Positions 564 through 6,040 of a stretch of DNA of 6,040 nt are shown here, piece by piece; the first letter of the stretch is position 1, and every line of letters starts with the position of its first letter. This DNA is from Acidobacteriota bacterium (GTDB lineage Bacteria; Acidobacteriota; Terriglobia; UBA7540), in assembly GCA_021789565.1 (NCBI GenBank), contig JAJYJL010000572.1, positions 1-6,040 on the forward strand, read 5' to 3'. The position numbers and the translations under genes are program-made. The notes below the pieces were generated by a model that searched no databases, was not told where the DNA came from, and saw only the letters and a program-made list of their open reading frames with translations.

Positions 564-1685
564 TTATAAGCGGGCAAACTGTGCAGCCGGTGAATCCACC
601 ACCCTGCGCACCCATTCTCTGGTTTTGATAAAGTCCGTCCTGTCCCGGATCATCTCAAAATATTTCTTCTCCAGCGTTGACTTCAAGACCCGGTTCCTCA
701 TAATTAATCGCTCGATCTGAACTGCCATTTCCAGATGATCGCGCAGGAAGGCGGGGTCGGCGATCATTCCGATAATGGATTCCTCGAACACCACCAGGTC
801 ATGCCAGTTCCCCAGTTGGGTCTGGAGGCTGCGGAGCCAGATTAATGCCTCCTTGCTTCCAGAGACGTCGAACGCATGAGTCACCTCAATCAGGTACCGC
901 ACACGCTTGGCGGCGATGCGCGTGCGATGCAGGACGGCCGGACTGTGCTCGTAGCGTGATTGAGCGATCTCCTGCTCAAGCTCCGTCCATACAGCCTTCA
1001 ATGCGTCGCTGATGCGTTCATAAAACTGCTCTACCGTGAGATTCGCCGCGGTCCCGTCGCGACCTGGATTCCCGGTCGCAGAAGCAGAATCTCCGTTGGC
1101 AGGAAGGTAGTCCTTCAGACGTACATAGATGGCCGAAAGGTTGGCCTTAGCCAGCTTGCGTAGAGATTTTTCCATCCTGGCGGAGCGCAATTCCTTTAGA
1201 TACTGGCGGATGGCCTCCCAGGCTTCGCGGCGCGCCGTGTGTTTCCGAGCGAGGGCTGCGTCCACGCGTTCAAGCAGCACATCATAGTTTCTGACTTCTG
1301 ACAACGAACCGCGGCAACGCTTAAGGCCGCGGTATAACTTGCGAACTTCTCCTGAACGCGGCAAGGGATAAACCAGATCGATCACTTGTTGCAACCGCCT
1401 GGTTGCTACGCGCAAATCGTGGATGGCGCCAGGATCGTCACCTTGTAAGACCTTCGGTTCGAGGGACACGCATTTGTCCAGGTGCTTGATGGCCAGGCTG
1501 GAGACCCGCGCCCACTCTGCAGATGGGAGAGATCCATTGCCCATCTCTGGCACTTCCCGCCCGAAGTGCTCTTCTTGCGGGTGTGCGCCTACCGCGCCAT
1601 GCTTTTCCAGGTCGTTTCGCAACAGAACTGGAGGAGAGTTTGTCTCGGAAACGACATGTCCGCCGTGCCCGTTTGAATGACCCAT
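564..1685 (-). CDS. CHAD domain-containing protein
   Basis: This is a 373-residue protein read from ATG 1685-1683 to TAA 566-564. CHAD is an all-helical, histidine-containing domain whose members bind inorganic polyphosphate, often as granule-associated proteins. Two internal repeats show the hallmark: 'IHDLRVATRRL' near residue 88 and 'LHRTRIAAKRVRY' near residue 252, each with His followed by basic residues on one helix face. 'LQTQLGNWHD' near residue 287 is the usual conserved loop of the second half. The halves are joined by a flexible Gly/Ser/Asn linker at about residues 195-215. The ATG at 1685 has an SD-like CAGGGTG a few bases upstream. The frame extends to a TTG at 1775, but that codon has no SD and lies in a candidate promoter. 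A later ATG at 1544 would give 326 residues with the whole CHAD domain intact. The gene is convergent with the thymidylate-kinase-like gene (10-base gap) and divergent from nifJ. No second catalytic domain such as CYTH is present. Confidence 0.88.
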   Translation of the reverse strand: MGHSNGHGGHVVSETNSPPVLLRNDLEKHGAVGAHPQEEHFGREVPEMGNGSLPSAEWARVSSLAIKHLDKCVSLEPKVLQGDDPGAIHDLRVATRRLQQVIDLVYPLPRSGEVRKLYRGLKRCRGSLSEVRNYDVLLERVDAALARKHTARREAWEAIRQYLKELRSARMEKSLRKLAKANLSAIYVRLKDYLPANGDSASATGNPGRDGTAANLTVEQFYERISDALKAVWTELEQEIAQSRYEHSPAVLHRTRIAAKRVRYLIEVTHAFDVSGSKEALIWLRSLQTQLGNWHDLVVFEESIIGMIADPAFLRDHLEMAVQIERLIMRNRVLKSTLEKKYFEMIRDRTDFIKTREWVRRVVDSPAAQFARL

Positions 1686-1774
1686 ACGACACCCTGGTGG
1701 ATTACGGAGTTTTGCCCGATCCCTGGCCGCCACCGGCGATGCACCACACCTTTCGCCGATGGGCCCGTGAAACA

Positions 1775-1780
1775 ATTATG
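1775..1780 (-). promoter_or_regulatory. Possible -10 element for the CHAD gene
   Basis: Read on the - strand this is CATAAT, a 5/6 match to TATAAT, about 90 bases upstream of the chosen ATG at 1685. No convincing -35 box sits at 16-18 bases spacing; the best match, TAGACT, is too close at 13 bases. It argues mildly against the TTG at 1775 as the start, since that codon would overlap the promoter. Confidence 0.22.
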
Positions 1781-1841
1781 ATTCGATAGCAACAGTCTAC
1801 AGATAAATTTTGGCCATTACAACGCCTTCTCGTAGCTCCAG

Positions 1842-1855
1842 CGGGCTGCTGCCCG
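1842..1855. other. Short perfect hairpin in the CHAD-nifJ intergenic region
   Basis: CGGGC-TGCT-GCCCG forms a five-base-pair GC stem with a four-base loop. No T-run follows on either strand, so it is not an intrinsic terminator. It lies about 40 bases upstream of the candidate sigma-54 promoter, and its role is unknown. Confidence 0.3.
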
Positions 1856-1880
1856 ATTGAAGTAAATCCCTCCAATCTTC

Positions 1881-1896
1881 AGGCACGAGCGCTGCA
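1881..1896 (+). promoter_or_regulatory. Candidate sigma-54 (RpoN) -24/-12 promoter for nifJ
   Basis: The sequence AGGCACGAGCGCTGCA matches the sigma-54 consensus TGGCACG-N4-TTGCA at 10 of 12 defined positions. The essential GG (1882-1883) and GC (1894-1895) are exactly ten bases apart. The expected transcription start is near 1907, giving a leader of about 105 bases before the nifJ ATG. Sigma-54 control is well known for nif-linked and redox genes, and such promoters need an enhancer-binding activator. I did not identify an activator site. A match of this quality can occur by chance, but its position and strand are right and no good sigma-70 promoter competes with it. Confidence 0.42.
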
Positions 1897-1927
1897 AGCG
1901 GGTTTTTCGTAAATTTTGTCTAACCGA

Positions 1928-1947
1928 AAAATGTGACGCTCATCACT
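1928..1947. promoter_or_regulatory. Candidate CRP/FNR-family or Rex-like operator upstream of nifJ
   Basis: AAATGTGA-CGCTCA-TCACT is an interrupted inverted repeat with TGTGA-N6-TCAC(T). It matches 9 of 10 core positions of the CRP-type site TGTGA-N6-TCACA, and partly matches the Rex site TTGTGA-N6-TCACAA. If transcription starts near 1907 the site lies in the leader and would suit a repressor. If an unseen promoter starts near 1980 it would suit an activator at about -41. Which regulator binds is inference. Confidence 0.33.
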
Positions 1948-2002
1948 GCGCAGGTGGGTACCAGGGCCTAGCCTTAAGATGTTATAGAGCTTTCATGATT
2001 GC

Positions 2003-2008
2003 GGAGGG
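2003..2008 (+). promoter_or_regulatory. Shine-Dalgarno of nifJ, deciding the start
   Basis: GGAGGG is a near-ideal ribosome binding site. It ends 5 bases before ATG 2014 and only 2 bases before ATG 2011, so 2014 is the better start. The in-frame TTG at 1999 lies upstream of this site and cannot be served by it. The ATG at 2026 is 17 bases away, which is too far. Confidence 0.75.
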
Positions 2009-2013
2009 AAATG

Positions 2014-5000
2014 ATGGCAGGAGCCATGCGCACAATCGACGGGAATGAGGCGACCGCGTCCGTAGCCTATGCCACAAGCGAGGTGATTGCCATCTACCCG
2101 ATCACTCCCTCGTCTCCCATGGGTGAACTGGCTGACCAGTGGGCGGTGGAAGGCGCCCCGAACATCTGGGGAACGGTTCCCAAGGTGATGGAAATGCAGA
2201 GCGAAGGCGGGGCTGCCGGGGCCCTGCACGGGGCAATCCAGGCCGGAGCGCTGGGCACAACCTTTACTTCCTCGCAGGGACTCTTGCTGATGATCCCGAA
2301 CATGTACAAGATGGCGGGCGAACTGACGCCTGCCGTCCTTCACGTGGCGGCCCGTACCGTGGCCACTCATGCACTTTCCATCTTCGGGGACCACAGTGAT
2401 GTGATGGCCACGCGAGCCACAGGTTTCGCGTTGCTCGCTGCCAACACGGTTCAGGAATCCATGGATCTCGGACTGATCGCTCATGCCGCCACGCTGGAAT
2501 CGAGGGTCCCGTTTCTCCACTTCTTTGATGGGTTCCGCACTTCACACGAGATTGCCAAGGTCAAGCAAATTGAAGAGGCTCATGTCAGGGCGCTGATTGA
2601 CCAGGACGCCGTTCGCGCCCATAGGGAACGCTCGCTGTCACCGGACCATCCGTTTATCCGGGGTACCGCCCAGAACCCCGACGTCTATTTCCAGGCCAGG
2701 GAAGCTGCCAATCCGTTCTACCTGGCTTGTCCTACGATTGTTCAAAATGTGATGGACCGCTTTGCGCAGATCGTCGGGAGGACTTACCACTTGTTTGACT
2801 ACGTGGGCGCGCCTGAAGCTGAGCGTGTGATTGTCATGATGGGTTCAGGTGCCGAGGCGGCGCAGGAAGCCGTTGAGCACCTTGTCGAGAAGGGCGAAAA
2901 GGTCGGTTTGGTTAAGGTTCGTCTTTATCGGCCGTTTTCTGTTGAGCACTTTGTTGCTCTGCTACCTCCGACGGTAAAAACGATCGCCGCACTCGACCGC
3001 ACCAAAGAACCGGGCGCTGTTGGCGAACCGTTATACATGGATGTCGTGACTGCGTTGTCTGAAGCCATCGGGGCGCCAAATGTGAGACTGCGAGTGGCTC
3101 CGAAGGTCATCGGTGGCCGTTATGGTCTTTCCTCCAAAGAATTTACGCCGGCGATGGTGAAGGCAATCCTGGACGAGATGTCGAGTAACAAGCCGAGGAA
3201 CCACTTCACCGTCGGAATTGTGGATGACGTCTCACACACCAGCCTCGGCTATGATCCGGAGTTCTCGACCGAGAATCCCGGGGCTGTCAGGGCCATCTTC
3301 TATGGGTTGGGCTCCGACGGAACTGTGAGTGCCAACAAGAACTCCATCAAGATCATCGGGGAAGAGACGGAAAACTACGCTCAGGGTTACTTTGTTTATG
3401 ACTCCAAGAAATCAGGTTCGGTGACCGTTTCGCACCTGCGTTTTGGTAAGAGACCGATTCATTCCACGTACCTGATCAGCAAGGCCAACTTTGTGGCCTG
3501 CCATCAATTCGGCTTCCTTGAGCGTTTCGACGTTCTGGGAAGCGCGGAGCCAGGATCGACGTTCCTGTTGAACTCACCTTATGGTTCCGCGGACGTATGG
3601 GAGCACCTTCCCCGCACCACCCAGGAGCACATCGTCAACAAGAAGCTGAGATTCTACGTGATTGATGGCGTCAAAGTGGCCCGGGAAGCGGGAATGGGTG
3701 GCCGGATCAATACCGTCATGCAGACCTGCTTTTTTGCCCTCAGCGGTGTGCTTCCCCGTGACGAGGCCATTCAACAGATCAAGCACTCGATCGAAAAGAC
3801 CTACGGAAAGCGTGGGGAAACGATTGTTCAGAAGAACTTTGCCGCGGTTGACCGGGCACTCGACAATCTGCACGAAGTTCCAGTCAGCCAGCAGGCAAAC
3901 AGTGGGTTTGATATTCAGCTGCCGGTGCCCGCTCAGGCTCCAGAATTCGTCCGGAATGTTACGTCAAGAATCATCATAGGCGAGGGTGATTTGCTTCCAG
4001 TCAGTGCCTTCGGCCCCGACGGTACCTTCCCGACCGGGACCGCCCAATGGGAGAAGAGAAACATCGCGCTCGAAATCCCTGTGTGGGATGCGGACCTGTG
4101 TATCCAATGCGGCAAGTGTGTTCTGGTTTGTCCTCACTCGGTAATCCGGGCGAAAATTTATGATTCAAAGTGGCTGGAAAAAGCGCCGGCCAGCTTCAAA
4201 GCAACGGCAGCGCGCTGGAAAGATTTCAAGGAATACAAATACACTCTGACGGTTGCACCTGAGGATTGTACCGGCTGCACACTGTGCGTCCAGGTCTGCC
4301 CGGCAAAGAGCAAGAGCGAAGCTCGCCACAAGGCGATCAACATGGAGCCTCAGGCCCCGTTGCGAGACCAGGAGCGCAAGAATTGGGATTTCTTCCTGCA
4401 ACTACCGGAAATGGACCGCAGTCCTTTGAGCCTGGGGCAGGTGAAGGACGCCCAATTGTTGGAGCCGCTGTTTGAGTTCTCCGGAGCCTGCGCGGGTTGC
4501 GGCGAGACACCTTACATTAAACTGCTGACACAATTGTTCGGCGACCGCTGTCTGATTGCCAATGCCACTGGATGCTCTTCGATTTACGGTGGTAACCTTC
4601 CTACCACTCCTTACACCACGAACCACGAAGGCCTGGGGCCATCGTGGTCGAACTCGCTTTTCGAGGACAACGCGGAGTTCGGACTTGGAATGCGCCTGGC
4701 GGTGGACAAGCAGGCCGATTACGCGCGGTACCTGGTGGGAGACTTGGCAGGGCAAGTTGGAGAGGAACTGGCGGCCCAGATTCTGGCAGCCGATCAGGTA
4801 ACCGAGGAAGATATCGGGAAGCAGCGCGAGCGGGTGTGGGCGCTCAAGGAAAAACTTGGCGGTATTGATACCCTGGCAGCGCGCGACCTGCTGAAAGTTG
4901 CTGACTACCTGGTCAAAAAGGACGTCTGGATCCTGGGTGGAGACGGCTGGGCTTATGACATCGGCTATGGTGGTCTCGATCATGTGTTGGCATCCGGAAA

Positions 5001-5442
5001 GAACGTCAACATTCTGGTGCTGGATACCGAGGTTTATTCAAACACCGGTGGCCAGATGTCCAAAGCGACGCCGCGTGCGGCCATCGCCAAATTCGCCGCG
5101 GGTGGAAAGGAGAATCGAAAGAAAGATCTGGCGATGATGGCCATGACGTATGGCAATGTCTACGTGGCGTGCGTGGCAATGGGCGGGAATGATACGCATA
5201 CCATCAAAGCCTTTCTCGAGGCTGAGGCGTATGAAGGACCGTCTTTAATCATTGCTTACAGTCACTGCATTGCTCACGGCTATGATCTGGCCTTCGGTAT
5301 GGAACAGCAGAAAGCGGCGGTTCTGTCCGGTTACTGGCCGCTGTTCCGCTACAATCCTGCGCTGGCCAGGGAAGGGAAGAATCCCCTTCATCTCGATTCC
5401 AGGCCACCGTCTATTCCGCTTGAAAAGTATGGTTACAACTAA
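2014..5442 (+). CDS. nifJ: Pyruvate:ferredoxin/flavodoxin oxidoreductase (PFOR), ending at a premature in-frame TAA
   Basis: This cytoplasmic single-chain enzyme oxidatively decarboxylates pyruvate with CoA to acetyl-CoA and CO2 and passes electrons to ferredoxin or flavodoxin. Read to the TAA it has 1142 residues. Domains in order are the N-terminal pyrimidine-binding domain (about 5-240, YPITPSS at 28-34), the transketolase-C-like domain II (about 260-395), and the gamma/EKR domain (about 405-600). A two-cluster ferredoxin domain (about 675-775) and the TPP domain (about 820-1110) follow. Clusters are [11 protein letters not shown] (696, 699, 702, 706) and [11 protein letters not shown] (752, 755, 758, 762). 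The proximal cluster uses Cys826, 829, 854 and 1085. TPP binding shows GDG at 976-978 and YSNTGGQ with Asn1010. Thr31, Glu64 and Arg114 fall at the numbers I recall as catalytic in the D. africanus enzyme, supporting the start at 2014. All catalytic parts are intact. The stop removes only the family's C-terminal helical tail, encoded in frame immediately downstream. Confidence 0.96.
5440..5442 (+). other. In-frame TAA replacing a conserved Glu codon near the end of nifJ
   Basis: The codons read Y-G-Y-N-TAA-T-R-Y-T-M-L. PFOR homologues that I recall have a Glu here (YNETRY in cyanobacterial-type, AENRY in D. africanus-type). GAA to TAA is a single G-to-T change. Coding continues in the same frame with no indel, so this is a nonsense codon and not a frameshift. 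Whether it is real, a sequencing error or a read-through site cannot be told from the sequence. Confidence 0.85.
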
Positions 5443-5592
5443 ACCCGCTACACTATGCTTGTCAAATCCCGACCGGAAGTTGCAAGCCAGGCTCTGAAGC
5501 TCGCTCAGGAGGACGTAAAAGCACGCTGGGAGCTGTACGAGAAGCTGGCGGCATCACCCGCTGCCGAAGTTCCCAAGGAAGTGAAAAAATGA
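5443..5592 (+). pseudogene. nifJ: Detached C-terminal tail of nifJ (49 codons plus TGA)
   Basis: This continues the PFOR frame directly after the TAA and ends at TGA 5590-5592. It encodes [16 protein letters not shown], then [17 protein letters not shown], then a short Ala/Pro/Lys tail. The pattern of RY-x-x-L, then P-E-x-A, then an amphipathic helix with 'R-W-x-L-Y-E-x-x-A' is the normal terminus of PFOR after the TPP domain. With the stop read as Glu, the full protein would be 1192 residues, in line with the usual family length of about 1170-1200. The only internal ATG (5455) has no ribosome binding site, so a separate 45-residue peptide is unlikely. If the stop is real and not suppressed, this segment is untranslated leader for the next gene. 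Confidence 0.85.
5575..5581 (+). promoter_or_regulatory. Shine-Dalgarno of the DHODH-like gene, inside the nifJ tail
   Basis: AAGGAAG lies 7 bases before the ATG at 5589 and within the last codons of the nifJ tail. It supports the chosen start and lets ribosomes load here even if translation of nifJ stops early at 5442. Confidence 0.6.
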
Positions 5593-6040
5593 CAGATCTC
5601 CGCACAACTTACCTCGGATGTGAACTGAAGAGTCCTCTCGTTGTTTCAGCCTCGCCGTTATCGGAGGAGATCGACAACATTCGCAAGATGGAGGATGCTG
5701 GAGCGGGGGCGGTTGTCCTTCACTCGCTGTTCGAAGAGCAAATCATCCGGGAAAATGAGGAACTGCATCGTGGTCTCTCTGCGGGCACTGAGAGTTTTGC
5801 CGAGTCGCTGACCTACCTGCCGGAAGTTACCCAATACCAGCAGGTCCCGGACTTCGGTGTCCCGAGTGGCACGCCGGACATGACCGTTTATAACCGCGGT
5901 CCGGAAGGTTATCTGGAACATGTTCGCCGGGCTGCGGAAGCCGTCAGGATTCCTGTGATTGCCAGCCTCAACGCCACTTCGCCAGGTGGATGGGTAAAAC
6001 ACGCTCAGAGAATAGCGGAGGCTGGCGCATCAGCTCTGGA
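5589..6040 (+). CDS. Dihydroorotate dehydrogenase-like flavoprotein, 3' end outside the window
   Basis: It starts at ATG 5589, overlapping the TGA of the nifJ tail as ATGA, and stays open for 150 codons to the window edge. The N-terminus '[20 protein letters not shown]' matches the first beta strands of the DHODH FMN-binding TIM barrel. '[19 protein letters not shown]' follows, and the 'IPVIASLN' strand with '[14 protein letters not shown]' is also typical. The inserted stretch '[14 protein letters not shown]' marks the DHODH-like subgroup I recall from cyanobacteria and relatives, not the classical PyrD of pyrimidine synthesis. The catalytic Cys/Ser loop lies beyond the window, so activity cannot be judged. 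Its tight coupling to nifJ suggests a redox function linked to PFOR or ferredoxin and not UMP synthesis, but that is inference; the real substrate of this subgroup is unknown to me. Confidence 0.85.

What the first reader, a model, noticed from the sequence alone, without database searches (positions are those of the whole stretch)
5437..5592. nifJ interrupted by an in-frame TAA at a conserved Glu codon, with the intact C-terminal tail following
Directly seen: the PFOR frame stops at TAA 5440-5442, yet the next 49 codons in the same frame encode the typical family terminus and end exactly where the next gene's start overlaps. The stop replaces a Glu conserved in remembered homologues, so one G-to-T change explains it. 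The tail shows no other damage, so the lesion is very recent, a base-call or assembly error, or tolerated by read-through. The TAA codon excludes selenocysteine and pyrrolysine explanations. Standard gene callers would report a protein about 50 residues short and leave the tail as intergenic.
Basis: partly seen in the sequence, partly recalled or inferred. Interest (0 to 1): 0.72.

Follow-up and report, generated by a model that had tools for sequence, protein, structure and literature searches.

The report
Private stop codon late in nifJ
One environmental DNA fragment carries a stop codon near the end of a well-known metabolic enzyme gene, at a spot where every relative compared has the same amino acid; it looks like a sequencing error or a very fresh mutation, not a new mechanism.

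Summary
The nifJ (pyruvate:ferredoxin oxidoreductase, PFOR) frame stops at TAA 5440-5442. The next 49 codons (5443-5589) are the family's ordinary C-terminus, and their TGA (5590-5592) overlaps the ATG (5589) of the next gene. The stop sits at a Glu conserved in 180 of 180 aligned relatives and encoded GAA or GAG in 120 of 120 non-duplicate loci. No relative examined ends there. The window's own protein is one sequence from one 6040-base contig. The tail differs from the five nearest proteins about as much as the body, and the protein has no excess of private residues, so no decay is seen. One private residue, Gly at aligned position 1133, lies three codons before the stop (chance about 0.04, post hoc): a weak hint of local miscalling. 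Nothing found supports recoding: TAA, not shared, no stable RNA structure after it, a neighbouring gene ending in TAA. Suppressor tRNAs and a second PFOR could not be sought (no genome held). Verdict: a private nonsense difference, most likely a base-call or assembly error in one metagenome contig, next a very recent real mutation. Only reads can decide. Ordinary; low interest.

The parts
2014..5442 (+). nifJ / pyruvate:ferredoxin (flavodoxin) oxidoreductase frame up to the in-frame TAA (1142 codons from ATG 2014, then the stop)
   Evidence: TIGR02176 1812.9 bits; Pfam POR_N, PFOR_II, POR, EKR, Fer4 types and TPP_enzyme_C
5431..5433 (+). Gly codon (aligned position 1133) not seen in any of 180 relatives, which have I 82, V 78, A 11, M 5, T 3, L 1; three codons before the stop
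5440..5442 (+). in-frame TAA at a conserved Glu position (GAA 61, GAG 59 in 120 non-duplicate loci)
5443..5589 (+). 49 codons of ordinary PFOR C-terminus in the same frame, without visible damage
5590..5592 (+). TGA at the family's usual end, overlapping the next gene's start (ATGA 5589-5592)
   Evidence: an ATGA overlap stands at the true stop in 18 of 120 non-duplicate loci
5589..6040 (+). dihydroorotate dehydrogenase-like gene (NF005741/PRK07565, partial match of 171.5 bits), runs off the window's end

Best explanation
The TAA is most likely a base-call or consensus error in a single metagenome contig from an Acidobacteriota (Terriglobia-like) bacterium; the living cell probably has the ordinary full-length PFOR. 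Shown: the stop is found in this contig only, among all relatives examined, and the gene is otherwise intact on both sides. Inferred: that the cause is technical and not biological.
For: The window's protein is one sequence on one 6040-base contig. Glu is invariant in 180 of 180 relatives, and none of the 119 relatives listed lacks the tail. Differences from the five nearest relatives are 4-7 of 49 in the tail against 87-110 of 1135 in the body. The window has 8 private residues; a hand-picked 11 relatives have 0 (one, P0008) or 3-9. Of columns invariant in the other relatives, the stop is the window's only departure, against 0-2 in each of 34 close relatives. A second private change lies three codons upstream (chance 0.04), which fits a locally poor stretch of sequence.
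Against: No reads, coverage or quality values could be seen, so error is not shown. No other frame break is visible in the four gene frames of the 6 kb, so the contig is not generally bad. The clustering test is post hoc and weak; with the earlier, smaller alignment there were 10 private residues besides the stop, not 8. A fresh true mutation would look the same.
Confidence: 0.55

Rival explanations
1. A real, very recent nonsense mutation: this strain, or a minority of its population, makes a PFOR short by about 50 residues, probably unstable or inactive, on its way to a pseudogene. Translation of the next gene, whose start overlaps the old end, may be lowered (inference).
For: Private, single, with no other damage seen in the gene. 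The lost tail resembles the end of separate beta subunits (the best PorB stretch extends from profile position 244 to 292 of 300 when the tail is included, total 97.2 to 102.2 bits, both far below that family's cut-off of 405) and aligns with the end of a solved PFOR chain (6cin, residues 6-1169 for the whole protein; 1135-1169 for the tail alone, E 0.018).
Against: The gene shows no relaxed constraint, so the lesion would have to be very young. A second PFOR copy could not be sought, because no own genome is held.
Confidence: 0.38
2. The stop is tolerated: some ribosomes read through TAA, or termination at 5440 is followed by re-initiation at the conserved in-frame ATG 5455-5457, giving the tail as a separate 45-residue peptide that completes the enzyme.
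For: The tail frame is intact and an in-frame ATG begins 12 bases after the stop; that Met is invariant in 119 of 119 relatives.
Against: No relative examined shares the stop. A published screen for prokaryotic read-through genes requires a shared stop, while admitting that it thereby misses species-specific cases (PMC1914089, passages). No unusually stable RNA structure follows (z +1.34; 186 of 200 shuffles fold at least as well), no Rfam match at gathering threshold, and I see by eye no Shine-Dalgarno-like stretch before ATG 5455. The CHAD gene on the same contig ends in TAA, which argues against a general reassignment.
Confidence: 0.05
3. A natural shorter PFOR that ends at this position in this lineage.
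For: Only the stop itself.
Against: 0 of 180 aligned relatives end here; the 34 relatives at 86-92 percent identity over residues 600-1135 (P0003-P0036) all carry the tail; the window's own tail has not diverged.
Confidence: 0.02

Closest known systems
Pyruvate:ferredoxin (flavodoxin) oxidoreductase, NifJ / single-chain PFOR (TIGR02176)
   Same: Domains, their order and the C-terminal tail sequence; far above the family cut-off (1845.6 against 911.35 bits with the stop passed over)
   Different: The reading frame is closed 49 codons before the usual end
Private nonsense alleles, young pseudogenes and single-base errors in metagenome contigs (general knowledge)
   Same: A single in-frame stop absent from the relatives, intact sequence on both sides, one contig
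   Different: Nothing distinguishing was found; which of these it is needs reads
Stop-codon recoding (selenocysteine at UGA, pyrrolysine at UAG, programmed read-through)
   Same: An open, conserved frame continues after an in-frame stop
   Different: The stop is TAA, is not shared by any relative examined, and no recoding signal was found

Membership tests
Single-chain PFOR / NifJ (TIGR02176) | Whole-protein score above the NCBIfam cut-off | tested here: met
   1812.9 bits without the tail, 1845.6 with it; cut-off 911.35
Single-chain PFOR / NifJ (TIGR02176) | POR_N, PFOR_II, POR, EKR, ferredoxin-like [4Fe-4S] and TPP-binding domains in order | tested here: met
   Pfam matches
Single-chain PFOR / NifJ (TIGR02176) | Complete C-terminus in one open frame | tested here: not met
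   TAA 5440-5442; profile covered only to 1125 of 1167
Conserved stop-codon read-through gene | Same stop at the same position in other species | tested here: not met
   0 of 180 proteins, 0 of 120 non-duplicate loci
Selenocysteine or pyrrolysine recoding | Stop is TGA or TAG | tested here: not met
   TAA
TAA reassigned to sense in this organism | TAA not used as terminator elsewhere | tested here: inconclusive
   The CHAD-domain gene (564-1775, minus strand) ends in TAA after its domain, which argues against reassignment; but it is one gene, its homologues' ends were not compared, and no whole genome is held
Pseudogene | Relaxed constraint or further lesions | tested here: not met
   Tail and body diverge alike; 8 private residues, against 0-9 in a hand-picked 11 relatives. 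A very young lesion would pass unseen
Base-call or assembly error | Reads disagree with the consensus at 5440-5442 | not testable with these tools
   No reads are held
Nonsense suppression | Suppressor tRNA reading UAA in the genome | not testable with these tools
   No own genome is held

The most novel reading that the evidence does not exclude
The organism makes working PFOR despite the TAA, either by reading through it or by re-starting translation at the conserved ATG 5455 and completing the thiamine-pyrophosphate domain with a separate 45-residue C-terminal peptide.
Probability: 0.05. Interest if true: 0.55.

Novelty: already known. Interest (0 to 1): 0.12.

Why it matters
It matters mainly as a caution: a stop inside a conserved gene of a one-contig metagenome protein should be checked against reads before any biology is built on it. 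If the stop were real and the enzyme still worked, it would be an unusual bacterial case of UAA read-through or of a split PFOR. The 1142-residue database record (P0002) also shows how gene calling leaves the conserved tail out.

Tried and rejected
Natural shorter end: rejected, none of 180 relatives ends there. Selenocysteine or pyrrolysine: rejected, the stop is TAA. Genome-wide TAA reassignment: not favoured, a neighbouring gene ends in TAA, but that is one gene. Downstream RNA signal: none found. Promoter and terminator scan of 1700-6040: 4 promoter-like sites (shuffles 1.8 on average) and 1 terminator-like site (shuffles 4.4), none near 5440. General decay of the gene: not seen. Stops in relatives: one search printed five rows with a stop inside the match and one more; on reading the six loci, five of the six stops lie at the end of the gene and read as its natural end, and one (L116, residue 288, TAG) is internal. 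Searches drew on different, overlapping sets, and one search did not print all its matches, so no rate is claimed. A DNA-level test of selection on the tail was not done: the nearest DNA held is about 75 percent identical in protein, which I judged too far; the 86-92 percent relatives were available as proteins only. Structure prediction was not run. A quasi-palindrome around the stop was considered by eye as a source of the two neighbouring changes and dropped, because it does not explain them. Literature: searches (listing; 12 passages of PMC1914089; listings only) showed nothing on this case; three searches on general terms, so this says nothing firm about what is in print.

Full report
What is there. 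The window is 6040 bases, the same length as the one contig behind its own protein in the database: P0002, one member sequence, one contig, longest 6040. No whole genome is held for it. Four gene frames fill it: a thymidylate-kinase-like gene cut at its start (2-553), a CHAD-domain gene on the minus strand (564-1775), nifJ (2014-5442, with the same frame open again to 5589), and a dihydroorotate-dehydrogenase-like gene from ATG 5589 that runs off the end. Of the relatives that carry a name, the nearest are Terriglobia, Bryobacteraceae and other Acidobacteriota metagenome genomes.

Check of the observation. The nifJ frame ends at TAA 5440-5442. The same frame then stays open for 49 codons (5443-5589) to TGA 5590-5592, which overlaps the next start as ATGA. 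With the stop passed over as X, the TIGR02176 match extends from profile position 1125 to 1166 of 1167 and gains 33 bits. The tail alone hits the last 36 positions of that profile (E 0.0027) and, weakly, residues 1135-1169 of a solved PFOR chain, 6cin (E 0.018); the whole read-through protein aligns with residues 6-1169 of that chain. So the tail is the family's normal C-terminus.

The stop against relatives. In an alignment of the 119 database relatives listed, Glu stands at the stop's column in 119 of 119, and each carries at least 44 residues after it. Adding the new proteins of the second search gives 180 of 180, with at least 40 residues after it. Both searches list only the best 120 hits. 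Of the 119 loci then held, 118 had a match reaching this column, and all 118 have Glu (duplicates included). After later fetches, 126 loci reached it; without 6 duplicates, 120 have GAA (61) or GAG (59), with 38-74 codons from there on, 119 ending in a stop and one running off its locus. No relative examined shares the stop.

State of the gene. Against the five nearest proteins (P0003-P0007) the window differs at 87, 105, 96, 110 and 101 of 1135 body positions and at 4, 4, 7, 5 and 6 of 49 tail positions. Residues found in none of the 180 relatives number 8 in the window besides the stop. In a hand-picked set of 11 relatives they number 6, 8, 5, 3, 6, 0, 4, 6, 6, 8 and 9; the 0 is P0008, which seems to have near-identical siblings in the set. 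Among columns otherwise invariant in the first set, the window departs only at the stop, while each of 34 close relatives departs at 0-2. I therefore see no decay, and the lesion, if real, is very young.

A hint of local miscalling. One of the 8 private residues, Gly at aligned position 1133 (5431-5433), is three codons before the stop, where relatives have I 82, V 78, A 11, M 5, T 3 and L 1. The chance that any of 8 randomly placed private residues falls within three codons of the stop is 0.040 (100,000 draws). With the first 119 relatives only, the private residues numbered 10, which would raise that chance somewhat. The test is weak and post hoc. It fits a short stretch of poor sequence, but also a multi-base mutation.

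Recoding. TAA is not the codon of selenocysteine or pyrrolysine (established knowledge). The 101 bases from the stop onwards fold less stably than most shuffles (z +1.34), no Rfam family matches the window at gathering threshold, and the CHAD gene on the same contig ends in TAA. A published screen for prokaryotic read-through genes demands that the stop be shared across species, to exclude pseudogenes and sequencing errors, and says that species-specific read-through lies outside its scope (PMC1914089, passages). This case fails that criterion, which makes read-through unlikely without excluding it. Re-initiation at ATG 5455 remains possible: the Met is invariant in 119 of 119 relatives, so it was there before the stop and is no adaptation to it.

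Background. Single stops are met elsewhere in assembled genomes. In (204 of 396 genomes with a match at E 1e-100 or better; 58 of 162 at E 1e-200 or better, sets that overlap), six printed rows carried a stop inside the match. Not all matches were printed, so this is an example, not a rate.

Verdict. A private nonsense difference in an otherwise intact nifJ. I put base-call or assembly error at 0.55, a real very recent mutation at 0.38, tolerated read-through or re-initiation at 0.05 and a natural short form at 0.02. These numbers are judgement. Reads across 5431-5442 would settle the first two.

Noticed in passing
5431-5433: A Gly codon where 180 of 180 relatives have I, V, A, M, T or L, three codons before the stop; a second oddity within 12 bases.
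   Followed up: partly
L116, residue 288 of the match: Another genome of the phylum draw has a single internal TAG in an otherwise open PFOR frame.
   Followed up: partly
564-1775, minus strand: CHAD-domain gene convergent with a thymidylate-kinase-like gene, with 10 bases between their ends; it ends in TAA.
   Followed up: partly
5589-5592: nifJ's usual stop overlaps the start of a dihydroorotate-dehydrogenase-like gene as ATGA; that form stands at the true stop in 18 of 120 non-duplicate loci. Loss of translation up to this point could affect the downstream gene.
   Followed up: partly
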